34,425 bases of DNA, from positions 1-34,425 of the forward strand of contig CANLKN010000037.1 of the NCBI GenBank assembly GCA_947491475.1, written 5' to 3'. The notes under the pieces are model-generated. The model worked only from the letters and a program-made list of their open reading frames with translations. It was not told the origin of the DNA and searched no databases. This document shows positions 3,077-18,260 of this stretch, in pieces. This DNA is from Akkermansiaceae bacterium. GTDB taxonomy: Bacteria > Verrucomicrobiota > Verrucomicrobiia > Verrucomicrobiales > Akkermansiaceae. The position numbers were made by a program, and so were the translations under genes. Numbering within the stretch: the stretch's first letter is position 1; every line of letters begins with the position of its first letter.

Positions 3077-3574
3077 TCACAGGACGTGAATCAGGATGAA
3101 GCCGATGAGCGCAAAAATGACCATCATCAAGAATGCCCTAGCAGCTGCACCAAAGGCGGCCTTTGAAGCGCCCTTGAATTCTGACGCGAATTGACGCAAC
3201 TCCTCTGCCGCTTCCTTTCTTGCGGTGCGAATCCAACGTTCGAGCACCGGGTCACTGAATTCCGGTGTGGATTGAGGCGGCTCGGTTCCCTGAGGAGGGC
3301 TAGTTGGCGGGGTTGTCTGGCCACCGTTACGACTGGGAGTGCACCGGGAATGCTTCGTGAATTCAGCATCGTAGCGCGTCTTGGCCACAGGATCATTCAG
3401 GATCTTGTAGGCGACGATGAGGCGCTGCGTGTGCGCCGTGGCATCAGGGGATGGATTCACGTCGGGGTGCCATTCTCGCATTCTGGCGCGAAAAGCCCGC
3501 CGGATTTCCTCGGGTGACGCTGATGGTTTGATTTCCAGCAGATCGTAGAAGTCTTCAAACGCTTCTGTCGTCAT
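3077..3574 (-). CDS. Membrane-anchored J-domain (DnaJ-like) protein
   Basis: A 165-residue protein. Residues 8-65 form a J domain with the HPD tripeptide at 36-38 that stimulates DnaK ATPase. A Pro/Thr/Gln-rich linker follows (about 75-105), then a charged helix (about 108-140) and a C-terminal hydrophobic segment (FLMMVIFALIGFILIHVL) that should anchor it in the membrane. It lacks the Gly/Phe region, zinc finger and substrate domains of full DnaJ, so it probably recruits DnaK to a membrane partner rather than acting as a general chaperone. Its start overlaps the end of the upstream small membrane protein gene by 20 bases, which suggests translational coupling. Confidence 0.85.
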   Translation of the reverse strand: MTTEAFEDFYDLLEIKPSASPEEIRRAFRARMREWHPDVNPSPDATAHTQRLIVAYKILNDPVAKTRYDAEFTKHSRCTPSRNGGQTTPPTSPPQGTEPPQSTPEFSDPVLERWIRTARKEAAEELRQFASEFKGASKAAFGAAARAFLMMVIFALIGFILIHVL

Positions 3575-3794
3575 CGCCTTTGTCGAGGGGCTTCACTTGG
3601 ATTTCTGTCGAGGAGCTGCGTTTCGCAGGCTTCCAACGGAGGAGAGTCAGGATGGCGACACCCGCGATTGCTCCAGCCCATGGACTTGATGACTGTCCCG
3701 GAGATTTCATCAGGCTGCCTAAAATGGCGGCAATGAAAAAGATTATGACGGCAAGCACAATCTTGATTAGCCAGAGTCGGATGTTGTCTTTCAT
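3555..3794 (-). CDS. Small two-TM membrane protein
   Basis: A 79-residue protein with two hydrophobic helices (about residues 7-28 and 38-52) and a charged cytoplasmic-looking tail rich in Lys, Ser and Asp. I do not recognise a family. It overlaps the J-domain gene by 20 bases, so the two are probably translated together, and it is a candidate membrane partner of that protein. That partnership is inference from position only. Confidence 0.7.
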   Translation of the reverse strand: MKDNIRLWLIKIVLAVIIFFIAAILGSLMKSPGQSSSPWAGAIAGVAILTLLRWKPAKRSSSTEIQVKPLDKGDDDRSV

Positions 3795-4731: not shown

Positions 4732-5489
4732 GGCTCAGGCTTCCATTCAGAACTCCTGGATTGTGCGCCCGAGATTTCAGAAGGGGACATTCTAGAAGAA
4801 ATTTTCTTTAAATACAATTTTGCCTCATGATGTCCAGAAGCTGAAGCTAAGTTGTACCACATGTATGCATGAATTCTGTATTCCACATGCTCTTTAAGCT
4901 GCCAAGCGGGCTCCTCACCATATCGTGAACGGTGAATTTGGCTTTCTAGGCTTTCATAATTTTCCTGCTCAGCAATAGACAGTTCGTCATAATAATTCCC
5001 TAGTTTAAATTGTGCATCTGCATCGCGCTGATTAGCAGCTTTTAAGAGCCATTTAACCGCTATGTTATTGTCGCGTGCAACGCCATTGCCTTCAAGATAG
5101 CATATTCCTAATCTATATTCGGCAGCAGTGTAACCCTGCTCCGCGGATTTCTGGAACCATTTAAACGCCGCCGTCGGATCCTTCTCCACTCCCATGCCGT
5201 ATGTGTAGCAGATTCCCAAGTAGTGCTGGGCTTGGGCGTGTCCTTGGTCAGCCGCCTTGGAAGCCCATTGGAATGATTCCTTGTAGTCTATTTTGACGCC
5301 CTTGCCGTAGCGGTAAATATCCGCGAGTTGAGCCTGAGAGTCAGCGTCGCCTTGCTTGGCTTCCTGTTGGATCTGGGCGACCTTCTCGGCTGACGGGTTG
5401 TCTTCAGCAATAACCTGTGGCCAGCATAGGCAGAGCAGGATGATGATTTTTGACGCCGTGTGGATAGAGGAGCTTCTACGTGTATTCAT
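4728..5489 (-). CDS. Secreted Sel1-repeat (TPR-like) protein
   Basis: A 253-residue protein with an N-terminal signal segment (about residues 14-29) followed by at least three Sel1 repeats of about 36 residues: QAQLADIYRYGKGVKIDYKE, AQHYLGICYTYGMGVEKDPT and AEYRLGICYLEGNGVARDNN. A fourth, degenerate repeat carries an insertion (YDELSIAEQENYESLES). Sel1 repeats build an alpha-helical scaffold for protein-protein contacts; many are periplasmic. The end MSPSEISGAQSRSSEWKP matches the end of the next Sel1 protein, so the two are probably paralogues. This gene is visibly more AT-rich than its neighbours, which may indicate transfer. Confidence 0.88.
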   Translation of the reverse strand: MNTRRSSSIHTASKIIILLCLCWPQVIAEDNPSAEKVAQIQQEAKQGDADSQAQLADIYRYGKGVKIDYKESFQWASKAADQGHAQAQHYLGICYTYGMGVEKDPTAAFKWFQKSAEQGYTAAEYRLGICYLEGNGVARDNNIAVKWLLKAANQRDADAQFKLGNYYDELSIAEQENYESLESQIHRSRYGEEPAWQLKEHVEYRIHAYMWYNLASASGHHEAKLYLKKISSRMSPSEISGAQSRSSEWKPEP

Positions 5490-5534
5490 GATTGTCGATA
5501 GGGCTGTCTTGAGTTGCTGATTTTGAACGGGGAG

Positions 5535-6251
5535 TCATTTGGGGTTTGAATACCCGTTATGGGACATCCTGCTACCTTTCGGCTTCCAATTGCTGCTCAA
5601 GATTTTTGCTTCCGAAATCTGCTCTGAGGTCATCTTAGAGCCGACCGTTAGGAGCGCCTCACCAGCGTCCTTGAAGCCACCCTGATTTGAAAGGCTTAGC
5701 CACATGTATGCGCTTACAAGATCCTTAGGGACGTCATTGCCCACGAAATATTGGACACCGAGGACGTATTGCGCTATACCCGCGCCTTGCTCTGCGGCTT
5801 TGCGAAGCCACTTGGCTGCTGCAGCGGCATCCTTGGCGACACCACCTGTGCCATCGGCATAGCAGGCCGCGAGGTTGAATTGCGACATTGGATGACCCTG
5901 CTCAGCAGCCTTTTGGAGCCACTTCAGCGACTTGGTAGCGTCTTTTGTGACGCCCAGACCCTCACCGTAGCATCGCGACACGGCCGCTTGAGCGCCACCA
6001 TGTCCTTGCTCTGCGGCTTTACGAAACCATTTTGCTGCCACAGAGGCGTCTCTGGGCACACCGTCGCCGTTACCGTAGCAAATACCCAAGTTGAATTGAG
6101 CATCAGCAGCGCCGTTTTCAGCCGCTTTTCGAAGTTCTTCGAATTTAACACCGGACGGCGCGTCCACTGCAGAGACCTGAGACCCACATAGGAAGATCAA
6201 GACGGAAAGAAGCCGAAGGAAGCACTGGAAAACACTCTTTGCCAGAGTCAT
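5535..6251 (-). CDS. Secreted Sel1-repeat protein
   Basis: A 238-residue protein with a signal peptide (LLSVLIFLCGSQVSA, cleavage near residue 28) and four Sel1 repeats, for example AQFNLGICYGNGDGVPRDAS, AQAAVSRCYGEGLGVTKDAT and SQFNLAACYADGTGGVAKDA. The C-terminal motif MTSEQISEAKILSSNWKPKG parallels the end of the neighbouring Sel1 protein. It lies 45 bases upstream of that gene and is probably the first gene of the leftward group. A periplasmic scaffold role is family knowledge; the specific partner is unknown. Confidence 0.88.
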   Translation of the reverse strand: MTLAKSVFQCFLRLLSVLIFLCGSQVSAVDAPSGVKFEELRKAAENGAADAQFNLGICYGNGDGVPRDASVAAKWFRKAAEQGHGGAQAAVSRCYGEGLGVTKDATKSLKWLQKAAEQGHPMSQFNLAACYADGTGGVAKDAAAAAKWLRKAAEQGAGIAQYVLGVQYFVGNDVPKDLVSAYMWLSLSNQGGFKDAGEALLTVGSKMTSEQISEAKILSSNWKPKGSRMSHNGYSNPK

Positions 6252-10783: not shown

Positions 10784-12868
10784 TCAGGGGCCGGTCTGTT
10801 CTTCCACACGCAAGAATCTCTTCTCTCTATTTCGCGTGGAGTAGAAGCGAGTGATTGTTCCGCCATTGCCGGCAATTCCACTTTCCACCGGCCCCCAAGA
10901 TTCCATGTCCGGCGAGTCCTCGATGCGGTAGGTTTTTCCAAGAGCCGAAGGAAACGAGAACTCGATTGCCGTTCTTGCCTCGGCCACCAACGCCGGCTTG
11001 TCGAGTGGATCGGTGGGAGACTTGCCGGTCTGCACCTCGTAGCCATCGAGGAAGCCGTCGCCGTCGGTGTCAGGATTGAGGGGCAAAGCTCCACGCACGA
11101 TTTCCTGGCCGTCGATCAATCCATCCCCATCGCTGTCTTGATTCCGGATACCGGTTCCCATGGCCAGTTCGTCAGGGTCTTTAAGACCGTCTCCATCGGT
11201 GTCATCGGATGCGGGATTCGAGTTGTGGACGTGGATCTCAGTGTAATCGTGCAGCCCATCGCCGTCGGAATCCGTGGAGAAATCACTCGTCCCGTAGAAT
11301 TTCTCCTGTTCCTGATTCAGTCTATCGCCATCGATGTCCTCGCTGAGATCATCCAGTATCGTGATGGTGATGATTTTCTCGAATATGCTCTCGCCTGAAT
11401 CGACAACCCGCACGCGAATGCTACGCGTCTCACCAGACTCAAAATCAAGGACGCTGGCGCTGATAATCTGATTGCCCGTGATGCTGAATGCGGCGTTGTC
11501 CGTGTCGCCTTCACCAGGGACGAGGGAATATTCAAAGGTGTCGTCGAGATCGAGATCCGTCGTCGTCAGTGAGGCGACTGGTGTCCCCGCTGGCAGGTTC
11601 TCAGCGATCTCAGCAGTAAGAGCGGAGATGTCTGTGGGGGGATTGCCATCGGCCAGAACTCTGGCGATTGCGAAATACCCGAGACCCGACTGGCCACCAA
11701 CCAAAATGCTCCCGTTGCCCTGGCAAACAATCGCCTTGGGTTGCCATACCTCGGGTTGCGGCATGATTCCTCCATTTGCGAATGTCGGATCGAGCGTTTG
11801 ATCCGGATTGTATCGGCAGATGAAATCGCCGCCGATTACGGCCAGCTTTCCGTTCGGCTGGAATGCCATTTTTGCTCCATTCCCGCCTGGGGTGATTGGG
11901 CCAACCGTCATGCCCGCTCCGCCTCGCAGAACCAGCTCGTAAGCGGTATTGTTGTAGCGTGTGCCTGATGTCCAGACTCCACCTTCGGAATCCACGGTTA
12001 CGCATTCAGCATAACCGCCATTGGTCCCGCCGACGTCGATGAGGCTGTCACTCTCGATGTTGCCGTTGACGCCATATCTCCCTACCCAATGCTGTTTCGG
12101 ACCGCCGAAGAAATCGTAGCCACCGGCCACGAGAAACTTCCCGTCGGGATACACATACAACGACCTTGGGGTGCGATTTGCGGCGTGTTTTTTGCCGAAA
12201 CTTGGATCCAACACTCCGTTTTCATCCAGTCGGGCGAGTGCAGAATAATTTGGCCAATTTCCGTCCGACGAGACACCGGCAACGAGGATTTTTCCGGATG
12301 GTTGGATGCCGACCGCGTAGGCTACTTCTGTTGCATTGGTAGTTCGACGGTCAAGCAATGTGACTCCGTTTTGCCCGAAGGTTTCATCGAGGCTCCCGTT
12401 AGGATTCAATCTCGCGACTCTTATTCTGCTACTGCCACCTGCAATCACAATCTTACCATCCGTCTGCAACGCTAGACAACGAGCCGCACCAACAAGAATA
12501 TTAGAAGCCATCTTCCCTCCTTGAGCGAAAGCGGAGTCAAGCGAACCATCCGGATTGAATCGTGCAACTGCGGATTCAGCTATTTGAGCCAGATTCGGTG
12601 CTGTGCTTCCAACGGCGACGATCTTGCCGTCGGGTTGAAGCAGCATATCTAAAATCCGGTCGTGCCTCTGTCCTTGTTCGCTGCTGTAATCGATTCTTGC
12701 GATTGCCACGCCGTTCGTCCCGAAATTCGGGTCCAAATCTCCCGGTGCTGCCATGACACCGGCAGTGAAGCCGGCAAGGCAAATTCCCAAGGCGAGAAGC
12801 AGCGTGTTTGATCCAAGGGCGAGGCGGCCACTTGTCGCGGCCCGCGTGGGGGATTTCGGTGTTTTCAT
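10784..12868 (-). CDS. Secreted delta-60 repeat protein with cadherin-like and calcium-binding TSP3-type repeats
   Basis: A 694-residue exported protein. A long signal peptide precedes GDLDPNFGTNG. About eight delta-60 repeats of roughly 50 residues follow (residues 42-450; hallmarks QPDGKIVAVG, RLNPNGSLDETFGQNG), which probably form a beta-propeller. Next is a cadherin-like domain (about 455-560, PPTDISALTAEIAENLPAGT), then thrombospondin type 3-like calcium repeats (DTDGDGLKDPDEL, DSDGDGLIDGQEI, DTDGDGFLDGYEV). The C-terminal domain (TYRIEDSPDMESWGPVESGI ... KRFLRVEE) is common in large exported verrucomicrobial proteins. An upstream in-frame ATG (12988) would add 40 basic residues; ATG 12868 fits the signal peptide. 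The leader is the long palindrome at 12916-13077. Role: probably a cell-surface protein. Confidence 0.9.
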   Translation of the reverse strand: MKTPKSPTRAATSGRLALGSNTLLLALGICLAGFTAGVMAAPGDLDPNFGTNGVAIARIDYSSEQGQRHDRILDMLLQPDGKIVAVGSTAPNLAQIAESAVARFNPDGSLDSAFAQGGKMASNILVGAARCLALQTDGKIVIAGGSSRIRVARLNPNGSLDETFGQNGVTLLDRRTTNATEVAYAVGIQPSGKILVAGVSSDGNWPNYSALARLDENGVLDPSFGKKHAANRTPRSLYVYPDGKFLVAGGYDFFGGPKQHWVGRYGVNGNIESDSLIDVGGTNGGYAECVTVDSEGGVWTSGTRYNNTAYELVLRGGAGMTVGPITPGGNGAKMAFQPNGKLAVIGGDFICRYNPDQTLDPTFANGGIMPQPEVWQPKAIVCQGNGSILVGGQSGLGYFAIARVLADGNPPTDISALTAEIAENLPAGTPVASLTTTDLDLDDTFEYSLVPGEGDTDNAAFSITGNQIISASVLDFESGETRSIRVRVVDSGESIFEKIITITILDDLSEDIDGDRLNQEQEKFYGTSDFSTDSDGDGLHDYTEIHVHNSNPASDDTDGDGLKDPDELAMGTGIRNQDSDGDGLIDGQEIVRGALPLNPDTDGDGFLDGYEVQTGKSPTDPLDKPALVAEARTAIEFSFPSALGKTYRIEDSPDMESWGPVESGIAGNGGTITRFYSTRNREKRFLRVEEQTGP

Positions 12869-12915
12869 CGGTTGTGCAGGTTGGAAACAAACCAGCCACC
12901 ATGGTTTCCCAAGGT

Positions 12916-13077
12916 GGCCGGGGTGTTTACAAGCCGCGTGAAGACGACCGCGACGACCTTTAGCCACCCCGAGGGGCAGCCTGAACATGCGCCGCCGCCA
13001 CCCCGACCTTTCGGTCTGATGGCGGCGTTGATTCGGTCAACGCCTTCCGCTTCACGCAGGGTTGTAAAGCCCCGGCC
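12916..13077 (-). repeat. Long nested palindrome, candidate structured RNA leader or palindromic element
   Basis: The outer arms 12916-12943 and 13050-13077 pair in three blocks: GGCCGGGG with CCCCGGCC, TTTACAA with TTGTAAA, and GCGTGAAG with CTTCACGC. Inside are further perfect hairpins: GGCGTTGA/TCAACGCC (13023-13043), CGCCGCCA/TGGCGGCG (about 12993-13026) capping GACC-TTTC-GGTC, and CCCC-GA-GGGG (about 12967-12976). The first two share a few bases, so they may compete. The left end is 48 bases before the delta-60 gene start, so on the minus strand it would be a 5' leader. It matches no riboswitch class I know. A palindromic mobile repeat is the main alternative. Confidence 0.65.
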
Positions 13078-13193
13078 GGATCTCTCCGGACGACAATATT
13101 GGACTCCATTCGCTAATATCCGACAAGAAAATAGTTCGGACTGAAACGACTCATTTCTTGCCCCACCTGCTGGCAGATGCTAGATATACAATC

Positions 13194-17795: not shown

Positions 17796-18260
17796 ATGGA
17801 CATCTACGTGGGCAACCTGCCCTACTCCGCTACTGAAGAAGACGTCACTGGACTCTTCGCCGCACATGGCCCTGTTGAACGGGTCAAAATCATCACCGAC
17901 CGCGATACCGGCAGATCCAAAGGATTTGCCTTCGTGACACTCGGCGACCAAAGCCAGCTGAATGCCGCGATTGAGGCGCTCAATGGATACGACTACCAAG
18001 GCCGTGCGCTCCGCGTGAATGCCTCGGAGCCCAAGGAATTCAAACCCAGCGGCGGCGGTGGCGGCGGCTACGGCGGTGAACGCCGTGGTGGCGGTGGCGG
18101 CGGCGGCTACGGCGGCGAACGTCGTGGCGGTGGCGGCGGCGGCGGCGGCTATGGCGGTGATCGCCGTGGTGGCGGCGGCGGCGGCTACAAAGGCGGCGGC
18201 GGTGGTGGTGGTTACAAAGGCGGCGGCGGCTACAAAGGTGGCGGCGGCGGCGACTGGTAA
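17796..18260 (+). CDS. Glycine-rich RRM RNA-binding protein
   Basis: A 154-residue protein. Residues 1-80 are a single RNA recognition motif with RNP2 (IYVGNL, 3-8) and RNP1 (KGFAFVTL, 42-49). The rest is a low-complexity tail of Gly-rich units (GGGGGGYGGERRG repeated, then GYKGG units), like plant glycine-rich and cyanobacterial Rbp proteins that bind RNA and are often cold-induced. The Arg-containing GERRG/GDRRG blocks may bind RNA non-specifically. A hairpin-forming inverted repeat lies in the upstream region, where cold-responsive leaders often have structure; that link is inference. Confidence 0.93.
   Translation: MDIYVGNLPYSATEEDVTGLFAAHGPVERVKIITDRDTGRSKGFAFVTLGDQSQLNAAIEALNGYDYQGRALRVNASEPKEFKPSGGGGGGYGGERRGGGGGGGYGGERRGGGGGGGGYGGDRRGGGGGGYKGGGGGGGYKGGGGYKGGGGGDW
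18051..18254 (+). repeat. GGC/GGT-rich tandem repeat encoding the glycine-rich tail
   Basis: About 200 bases of nearly pure GGN codons arranged as imperfect units of roughly 40 bases (GGC tracts, TAC GGC GGT GAA/GAT CGC CGT GGT), followed by shorter units with TAC AAA GGC. Such tracts change length easily by slippage, and assembly errors are likely here. Confidence 0.75.

What the first reader, a model, noticed from the sequence alone, without database searches (positions are those of the whole stretch)
12916..13077. Long nested palindrome upstream of a delta-60 surface protein gene
Two 28-base arms pair in three separate blocks (GGCCGGGG, TTTACAA, GCGTGAAG with their complements) and enclose at least three more perfect stems with tetraloop-like caps (GACC-TTTC-GGTC, GGCGTTGA/TCAACGCC, CCCC-GA-GGGG). 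This much nested pairing in about 160 bases is not chance. On the minus strand the element ends 48 bases before ATG 12868, so it would be a structured mRNA leader, perhaps a riboswitch or thermosensor. It fits no riboswitch consensus I know (cyclic-di-GMP, cobalamin, TPP and others rejected on missing core motifs). The alternative is a multi-copy palindromic element.
Basis: partly seen in the sequence, partly recalled or inferred. Interest (0 to 1): 0.7.

Follow-up and report, generated by a model that had tools for sequence, protein, structure and literature searches.

The report
Pseudoknotted mRNA leader, sRNA-Xcc1 kin
The palindrome is a knotted, switch-like RNA leader in front of a gene, one of several copies of a widespread RNA class whose 3' half was previously catalogued as a small RNA of Xanthomonas, and which in other bacteria sits in front of genes that control plasmid transfer, prophages and DNA modification.

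Summary
The element (window 12913-13091, minus strand) is a conserved RNA: in a 64-sequence alignment 96.7% of pair cells are standard pairs (shuffles 79%, slid controls 33-49%). The own genome holds six places, one truncated. Relatives occur in Verrucomicrobiales and in 52 of 385 sampled Alphaproteobacteria; one form is the leader of traM on pTiC58. Copies sit just upstream of start codons (118 of 147; other side 24 of 147). The 3' half is homologous, by reciprocal searches, to Rfam RF02221 (sRNA-Xcc1), filed as an sRNA, though the window scores 30 bits against a cut-off of 53. In the window the core's last strand is also the first strand of a terminator-like hairpin, so core and hairpin exclude each other: a riboswitch-like attenuator, input unknown. 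At RF02221 loci the variable P6 loop has complements both upstream and just downstream, mostly at the ribosome-binding site (13 of 29). Shown: structure, homology, position. Inferred: transcription, switching, signal.

The parts
13098..13126 (-). promoter-like pair: TTGTCG (13126-13121), 17 nt, TCCAAT (13103-13098); predicted start near 13091
   Evidence: In 39 Verrucomicrobial rows the best-scoring pair has a 17-nt spacer in at least 25, but that scan rewards TTG and is not independent. The strict consensus scan found none here. Inference.
13074..13091 (-). 5' hairpin H0 (GTCCGG-AGAG-ATCCGGCC)
   Evidence: folded for 64 copies and judged by eye, not counted
13057..13074 (-). hairpin H1 (CGGGG-CTTTACAA-CCCTG)
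   Evidence: by eye; in a part of the 64 single-sequence folds another fold wins
13062..13068 (-). PK3 5' strand TTTACAA, pairs with 12926-12932
   Evidence: 6 or more Watson-Crick pairs in 59 of 64 copies, 22% when partners are swapped
13050..13057 (-). PK2 5' strand (linker) GCGTGAAG, pairs with the P6 loop 12936-12943
   Evidence: 7 of 7 pairs change on both sides, 98.4% of cells paired; 33 of 39 and 22 of 23 copies vs 2-3% swapped
13047..13049 (-). PK1 5' strand CGG, pairs with CCG 13034-13036 in the loop of H2 (weakly tested: mostly invariant)
   Evidence: helix 2: 94.7% paired, few changes
13024..13044 (-). hairpin H2 GGCGTTGA-CCGAA-TCAACGCC
   Evidence: 5 of 6 pairs with changes on both sides (helix 3)
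12999..13008 (-). P3 5' strand GGTCGGGGTG
   Evidence: pairs with 12916-12925; 97.9% of cells, 5 of 9 pairs change on both sides (helix 4)
12950..12998 (-). P4 (12991-12998 with 12950-12957), conserved internal loop GCATGTTCAG / TAAAG, and P5 (12963-12980)
   Evidence: 8 of 8 P4 pairs and 4 of 4 P5 pairs change on both sides; many loop columns 90% or more conserved
12932..12949 (-). hairpin P6, whose loop (CTTCACG) is the 3' strand of PK2
   Evidence: 98.7% of cells paired, 3 of 5 pairs change on both sides (helix 7)
12926..12932 (-). PK3 3' strand TTGTAAA
12916..12925 (-). P3 3' strand CACCCCGGCC
12885..12921 (-). terminator-like hairpin CCGGCCACC-T-TGG-GAAA-CCA-T-GGTGGCTGG followed by TTTGTTT; its 5' strand overlaps P3
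   Evidence: -23.6 kcal/mol, z -3.7; similar arrangement in 8 of 31 Verrucomicrobial rows (window included), 12 of 38 and 0 of 39 in two other sets. The strict terminator scan lists none; the stem has a T-T mismatch
10784..12868 (-). downstream gene: 694-aa secreted-type protein with DUF5122 and TSP3 repeats

Best explanation
It is a cis-acting, pseudoknotted 5' leader RNA of an extended class whose 3' half is Rfam's sRNA-Xcc1. Transcription starts at H0. The RNA folds so that the H1 loop and the upstream linker pair with the strand after P6 and with the P6 loop (PK3, PK2), and P3 closes a conserved internal loop. P3's 3' strand is also the 5' strand of a terminator just before the gene, so a stable P3 core lets RNA polymerase read on (ON), and failure to form it ends transcription early and leaves a short stable RNA (OFF). 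In the RF02221 branch the same P6 loop can instead pair with a stretch at the ribosome-binding site, giving a translational form of the switch. What tips the balance (metabolite, protein, RNA or folding kinetics) is unknown. Shown: structure, homology, position. Inferred: transcription, termination, direction of switching, input.
For: Covariation of 44 pairs in 64 sequences, far above shuffles and slides; PK2 and PK3 swap tests. Position: an ATG frame of 55 aa or more starts 10-70 nt after 118 of 147 copies, 24 of 147 on the other side, 22-29% at random places. Terminator sharing P3's strand: window 9 pairs + TTTGTTT, with matching changes elsewhere (L220 CAGCCACTT/AAGTGGCTG-TTTTGTTTT, L212 GGTCACCAG/CTGGTGACC, L217 GATCGCC../..GGCGGTC-TTTTTTT). 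Homology to RF02221: all 87 model positions in the window at 30 bits, in 8 of 12 (E<=0.5) and 13 of 20 (E<=3) other loci, over the same half; model R2 finds 21 of 29 RF02221 loci plus L269, each time at the RF02221 place. P6 loop complement upstream in 22 of 29 RF02221 loci, within 66 nt downstream in 15, both in 13; swapped 6% and 5%.
Against: No expression data. The consensus scans find neither promoter nor terminator in the window. 23 of 31 Verrucomicrobial rows, 26 of 38 further copies and all 39 pattern-set alphaproteobacterial copies lack such a terminator; there the platform is only guessed. The downstream copy of the linker is absent from the window's branch (2 of 39 and 1 of 23, swapped level; repeat scores 12.8 against 12.8 swapped). 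RF02221 also gives weak chance matches: 2 of 14 control genomes ring below the cut-off, one of five matches in the own genome is not one of our copies, and two of our six places are missed. Sequences are related and rows were not deduplicated, so controls overstate significance.
Confidence: 0.75

Rival explanations
1. It is mainly a trans-acting small RNA gene, as sRNA-Xcc1 was described; the gene behind it is incidental or merely co-transcribed.
For: Homology to RF02221, filed as sRNA; an 88-nt product was mapped by RACE in Xanthomonas (PMC2996969, passages). A terminated leader would itself be a stable sRNA.
Against: Usual place before start codons of unrelated genes; loop complement just downstream, before the adjacent gene, in 15 of 29 RF02221 loci; in Xanthomonas cassettes it lies upstream of symE (PMC12444791, passages).
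Confidence: 0.15
2. It is a mobile or repetitive palindromic element (MITE/REP-like) that lands before genes.
For: One to eight matches per positive genome; a truncated copy in C35; sporadic distribution; unrelated genes behind it.
Against: Compensatory changes in pseudoknots and conserved loops; fixed orientation and distance to ATG in most copies. Target-site duplications were not tested.
Confidence: 0.05
3. RNA thermosensor or protein-bound antitermination site rather than a ligand-gated switch.
For: The same architecture would serve; no ligand is known.
Against: Thermosensors seldom keep invariant internal loops and pseudoknots (general knowledge, not tested); no co-occurring protein gene was sought.
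Confidence: 0.25

Closest known systems
Rfam RF02221, sRNA-Xcc1 (Xanthomonas)
   Same: 3' half P3-P4-P5-P6-P3' aligns over all 87 model positions; the upstream partner of the P6 loop is also present at 22 of 29 RF02221 loci; lies upstream of a gene (symE, PMC12444791, passages)
   Different: 30 bits against a cut-off of 53 for the window; internal loop GCAUGUCCAG/CUAAAG instead of AAUACAACA/GGAAUA (by eye); no downstream copy of the linker; terminator platform; RF02221 is filed as sRNA
traM leader of Ti and related plasmids (pTiC58)
   Same: same RNA: full-length R2 match, 108 bits, ending 60 nt before traM
   Different: no terminator in the 39 alphaproteobacterial pattern-set copies; a GCGGGGGCGYACCGC-like stretch lies before the start codon instead (by eye); not described as an RNA element in the listings and passages seen
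Riboswitch-type transcription attenuators (general knowledge)
   Same: aptamer-like core with conserved internal loop whose last helix competes with a terminator
   Different: no ligand known; hypervariable pseudoknot; genes behind it share no evident pathway

Membership tests
Rfam RF02221 sRNA-Xcc1 | score at or above gathering threshold (53 bits) | tested here: not met
   window 30 bits; best of the R1/R2-found loci is 45.4. One R2 match, G853:C9 (L269), does exceed it at 59.1
Rfam RF02221 sRNA-Xcc1 | full-length alignment to the model, reciprocal detection | tested here: met
   1-87 of 87 in the window and 21 of 32 other loci tried; R2 finds 21 of 29 RF02221 loci
Rfam RF02221 sRNA-Xcc1 | acts in trans as an sRNA | not testable with these tools
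   no expression or target data
Riboswitch | conserved structured leader upstream of a gene | tested here: met
Riboswitch | aptamer helix competes with an expression platform | tested here: inconclusive
   sequence fits in 20 of 108 copies tested, the window among them; not found in the other 88; no experiment
Riboswitch | direct ligand binding | not testable with these tools
   none
Known riboswitch or Rfam cis-regulatory class | match at gathering score | tested here: not met
   none in the window; in 16 relative loci only a tRNA
Mobile palindrome (MITE/REP) | copies without link to gene starts | tested here: not met
   118 of 147 vs 24 of 147 on the other side

The most novel reading that the evidence does not exclude
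A single, old class of pseudoknotted RNA switch, sensing one common signal, is used by mobile elements and host-interaction genes alike across Pseudomonadota and Verrucomicrobiota: it gates phage antirepressors, SymE, plasmid-transfer brakes (traM, a winged-helix gene beside virB11), DNA methylases and secreted proteins, by transcription attenuation in one branch and by a loop that chooses between its own linker and the ribosome-binding site in another.
Probability: 0.4. Interest if true: 0.88.

Novelty: new variant of a known kind. Interest (0 to 1): 0.74.

Why it matters
A family catalogued as an 88-nt sRNA of Xanthomonas appears to be the 3' half of a larger, far more widespread leader RNA with long-range pseudoknots. 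It stands before traM, whose protein restrains quorum-sensing control of Ti plasmid transfer, and before phage antirepressors, so an RNA-borne signal may set when mobile elements move. The copies give many natural variants, and the ligand question becomes directly testable.

Tried and rejected
Rfam at gathering score: nothing in the window, and in 16 relative loci only a tRNA. ncS035, mir-30, COG2908 and HOTAIR and hvt-mir-H16 were single sub-threshold hits that did not recur at the element; sRNA-Xcc1 did recur (also 20.9 bits in L031). Integron attC site: considered; the ends RYYYAAC/GTTRRRY (recalled) were not seen by eye, not searched. HEARO, group II intron, bridge RNA: considered from memory; no such Rfam match at E<=10. 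Helix GGCCGGGG/CCCCGGCC as the main stem, used in model R1: dropped after the P3 covariation. Downstream copy of the linker in the window's branch: not found. An ungapped-run test was too loose with G-U pairs and was replaced. NCBIfam named none of four downstream proteins above its cut-offs. Literature: the searches listed no title or abstract start on a leader or pseudoknot role of this RNA; the library lacks most subscription journals, and Chen 2011 and Weinberg 2017 are not held and were not seen. Papers seen: passages only of PMC2996969, PMC12444791, PMC12189769, PMC8876359, PMC11701678, PMC4909258; term searches of PMC6341043, PMC8632094, PMC11109978 (the first and last without a hit); the rest as search listings.

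Rows dropped: one search left out L061, L082, L111, L130, L096, L077, L148, L136 as partial or odd and kept 69 representatives; 64 of these 69 were given to (L051, L101, L118, L125, L137 were left out by oversight). L240 was dropped because I had assumed its place wrongly; it was still counted. Two A5 rows with short downstream sequence were dropped. R2 was built from A5; the A5 loci that were run against Rfam did not reach the RF02221 cut-off, but most alphaproteobacterial A5 loci were not run. Of ten stretches fetched only L269 was used.

Full report
What is there. A search of the own genome found further diverged copies, 73-78% alike for the best four besides itself; a model from four copies gave six places in all, one truncated. 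Among 59 genomes (own included) 25 have it, with one to eight matches. Across the phylum it was seen in 8 of 288 sampled genomes, all of the same order.

A blastn hit on two Methylobacterium/Methylorubrum plasmids led outside the phylum. A pattern from the conserved loop found 75 loci in the species-genome collection and 3 stretches in viral contigs. Model R1 confirmed 76 of these 78; the other two (L082, L111) gave partial matches to R2 at the same places. By their titles the 75 are Verrucomicrobiota or Alphaproteobacteria (my reading of the names). In a class-level sample around a Bradyrhizobium genome, 52 of 385 genomes have it, with up to seven matches.

Structure. On 64 sequences (A5) the named structure has 96.7% of cells paired; shuffles give 79.1%, slides of 1-3 columns 33-49%; 35 of 44 pairs change on both sides. 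The hallmark is PK2: the linker upstream of H2 pairs with the loop of P6. All seven counted pairs covary; swapping partners between sequences drops pairing from 0.90 to 0.52. A six-base complement is present in 33 of 39 Verrucomicrobial and 22 of 23 alphaproteobacterial copies, 2-3% when swapped. PK1 is mostly invariant and so weakly supported. A strand that varies widely yet keeps its match is what an RNA helix under selection looks like; the conserved GCATGTCCAG/CTAAAGG loop suggests a binding site (inference).

Place and partners. An ATG reading frame of 55 aa or more starts 10-70 nt after 28 of 35, 34 of 44, 33 of 38 and 23 of 30 copies in four sets; on the other side 6, 12, 4 and 2; random places 22-29%. 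Rows were not deduplicated, and four methylase leaders count as misses because their start lies further on or is not ATG. Genes behind it include DUF5122 proteins, TSP3/lectin proteins, DNA methylases, HTH regulators, a glycosyltransferase, an RgpF protein, a nuclease, TraM, and at RF02221 loci Bro-N, P22 antirepressor, KilA-N, Rha and SymE domains; many have no Pfam match. A query from a traM leader matched 343 of 72,556 plasmid records, among them pTiC58. R2 gives full-length matches there and on three more plasmids, E 2e-20 or better, each ending 60-62 nt before the next gene: traM twice, an HTH gene, and a winged-helix gene beside virB11. That the last resembles RctA is recalled, not tested.

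Link to RF02221. In lax searches of 12 loci, sRNA-Xcc1 matched the same half of the element in 8 (best 45.4 bits, E 5e-5), then in 13 of 20 more. In the own genome 4 of its 5 weak matches are our copies, while two of our six places are missed and 2 of 14 control genomes also ring below the cut-off. Conversely, R2 finds 21 of 29 RF02221 loci (E 2e-5 to 0.12), each at the RF02221 place and, except one partial match, reaching 62-119 nt further upstream, over H1 and the linker. At L269 (G853) an R2 match and an over-threshold RF02221 match (59.1 bits) overlap. RF02221 was found in 58 of 398 sampled Pseudomonadota genomes, 39 over the cut-off. So the Rfam family describes the 3' half of a larger RNA. 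By Rfam's own threshold the window is not a member; by homology it belongs to the same wider class.

How it may work. In the window the strand CCGGCCACC, which overlaps P3, can instead pair with GGTGGCTGG, followed by TTTGTTT, -23.6 kcal/mol. Stems of 7 or more pairs with a T-rich tail that use this strand occur in 8 of 31, 12 of 38 and 0 of 39 copies of three sets; mean stem length is 6.1 against 5.3 swapped, 7.6 against 6.1, and 6.7 against 6.5. At RF02221 loci the P6 loop's complement is found upstream in 22 of 29, within 66 nt downstream (mostly at the ribosome-binding site) in 15, and in both in 13, against 6% and 5% swapped; direct-repeat scores agree (20.0 against 16.1 swapped), while the window's branch shows no such repeat (12.8 against 12.8). 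Two platforms with one core is the pattern of riboswitch-like leaders. The direction (core formed = ON) and the input are inferred. The consensus scans of the window list neither promoter nor terminator.

Verdict. Real, conserved and functional-looking; a new variant of a known RNA family that recasts that family as a leader switch. The signal is unknown.

Noticed in passing
L003 (own genome C70:3476-3808) and L046: Behind the C70 copy the start of a methylase-like frame (MPPSARHT..LNWI) looks cut short compared with L046, followed by another methylase gene.
   Followed up: no
L148 (IMGVR_UViG_3300044796_000357) 3403-3640: Viral-contig copy: H1 plus linker (TTCAAAGCCGCTTGGAG) is repeated just before the ATG of the next gene, the downstream-copy arrangement otherwise seen at RF02221 loci.
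   Followed up: partly
L146, L147 (one viral contig, IMGVR_UViG_3300007965_000005): Two copies of the RNA, each before a PDGTPPPP-type protein, in near-duplicate stretches of several genes at the two ends of one contig.
   Followed up: no
L101 (Pelagibacteraceae MAG JAGYIF010000002.1): A Verrucomicrobial-type copy (135 bits with R1) in a genome titled Pelagibacteraceae; possibly a misbinned or misnamed contig.
   Followed up: no
L050, L070 (G031 C39, C37), L002 and others: Several copies lie within a few hundred bases of contig ends, as if paralogous flanking genes break the assembly.
   Followed up: no
window 18042-18248: Long GGCGGC-rich (glycine-type) repeats in a reading frame.
   Followed up: no
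window 5134-6062: Four degenerate 59-nt repeats, perhaps Sel1-like (guess).
   Followed up: no
L066, L200, L220: Internal loop intermediate between GCAUGUCCAG/CUAAAG and the RF02221 form AAUACAACA/GGAAUA, perhaps two specificities of one site (by eye).
   Followed up: no
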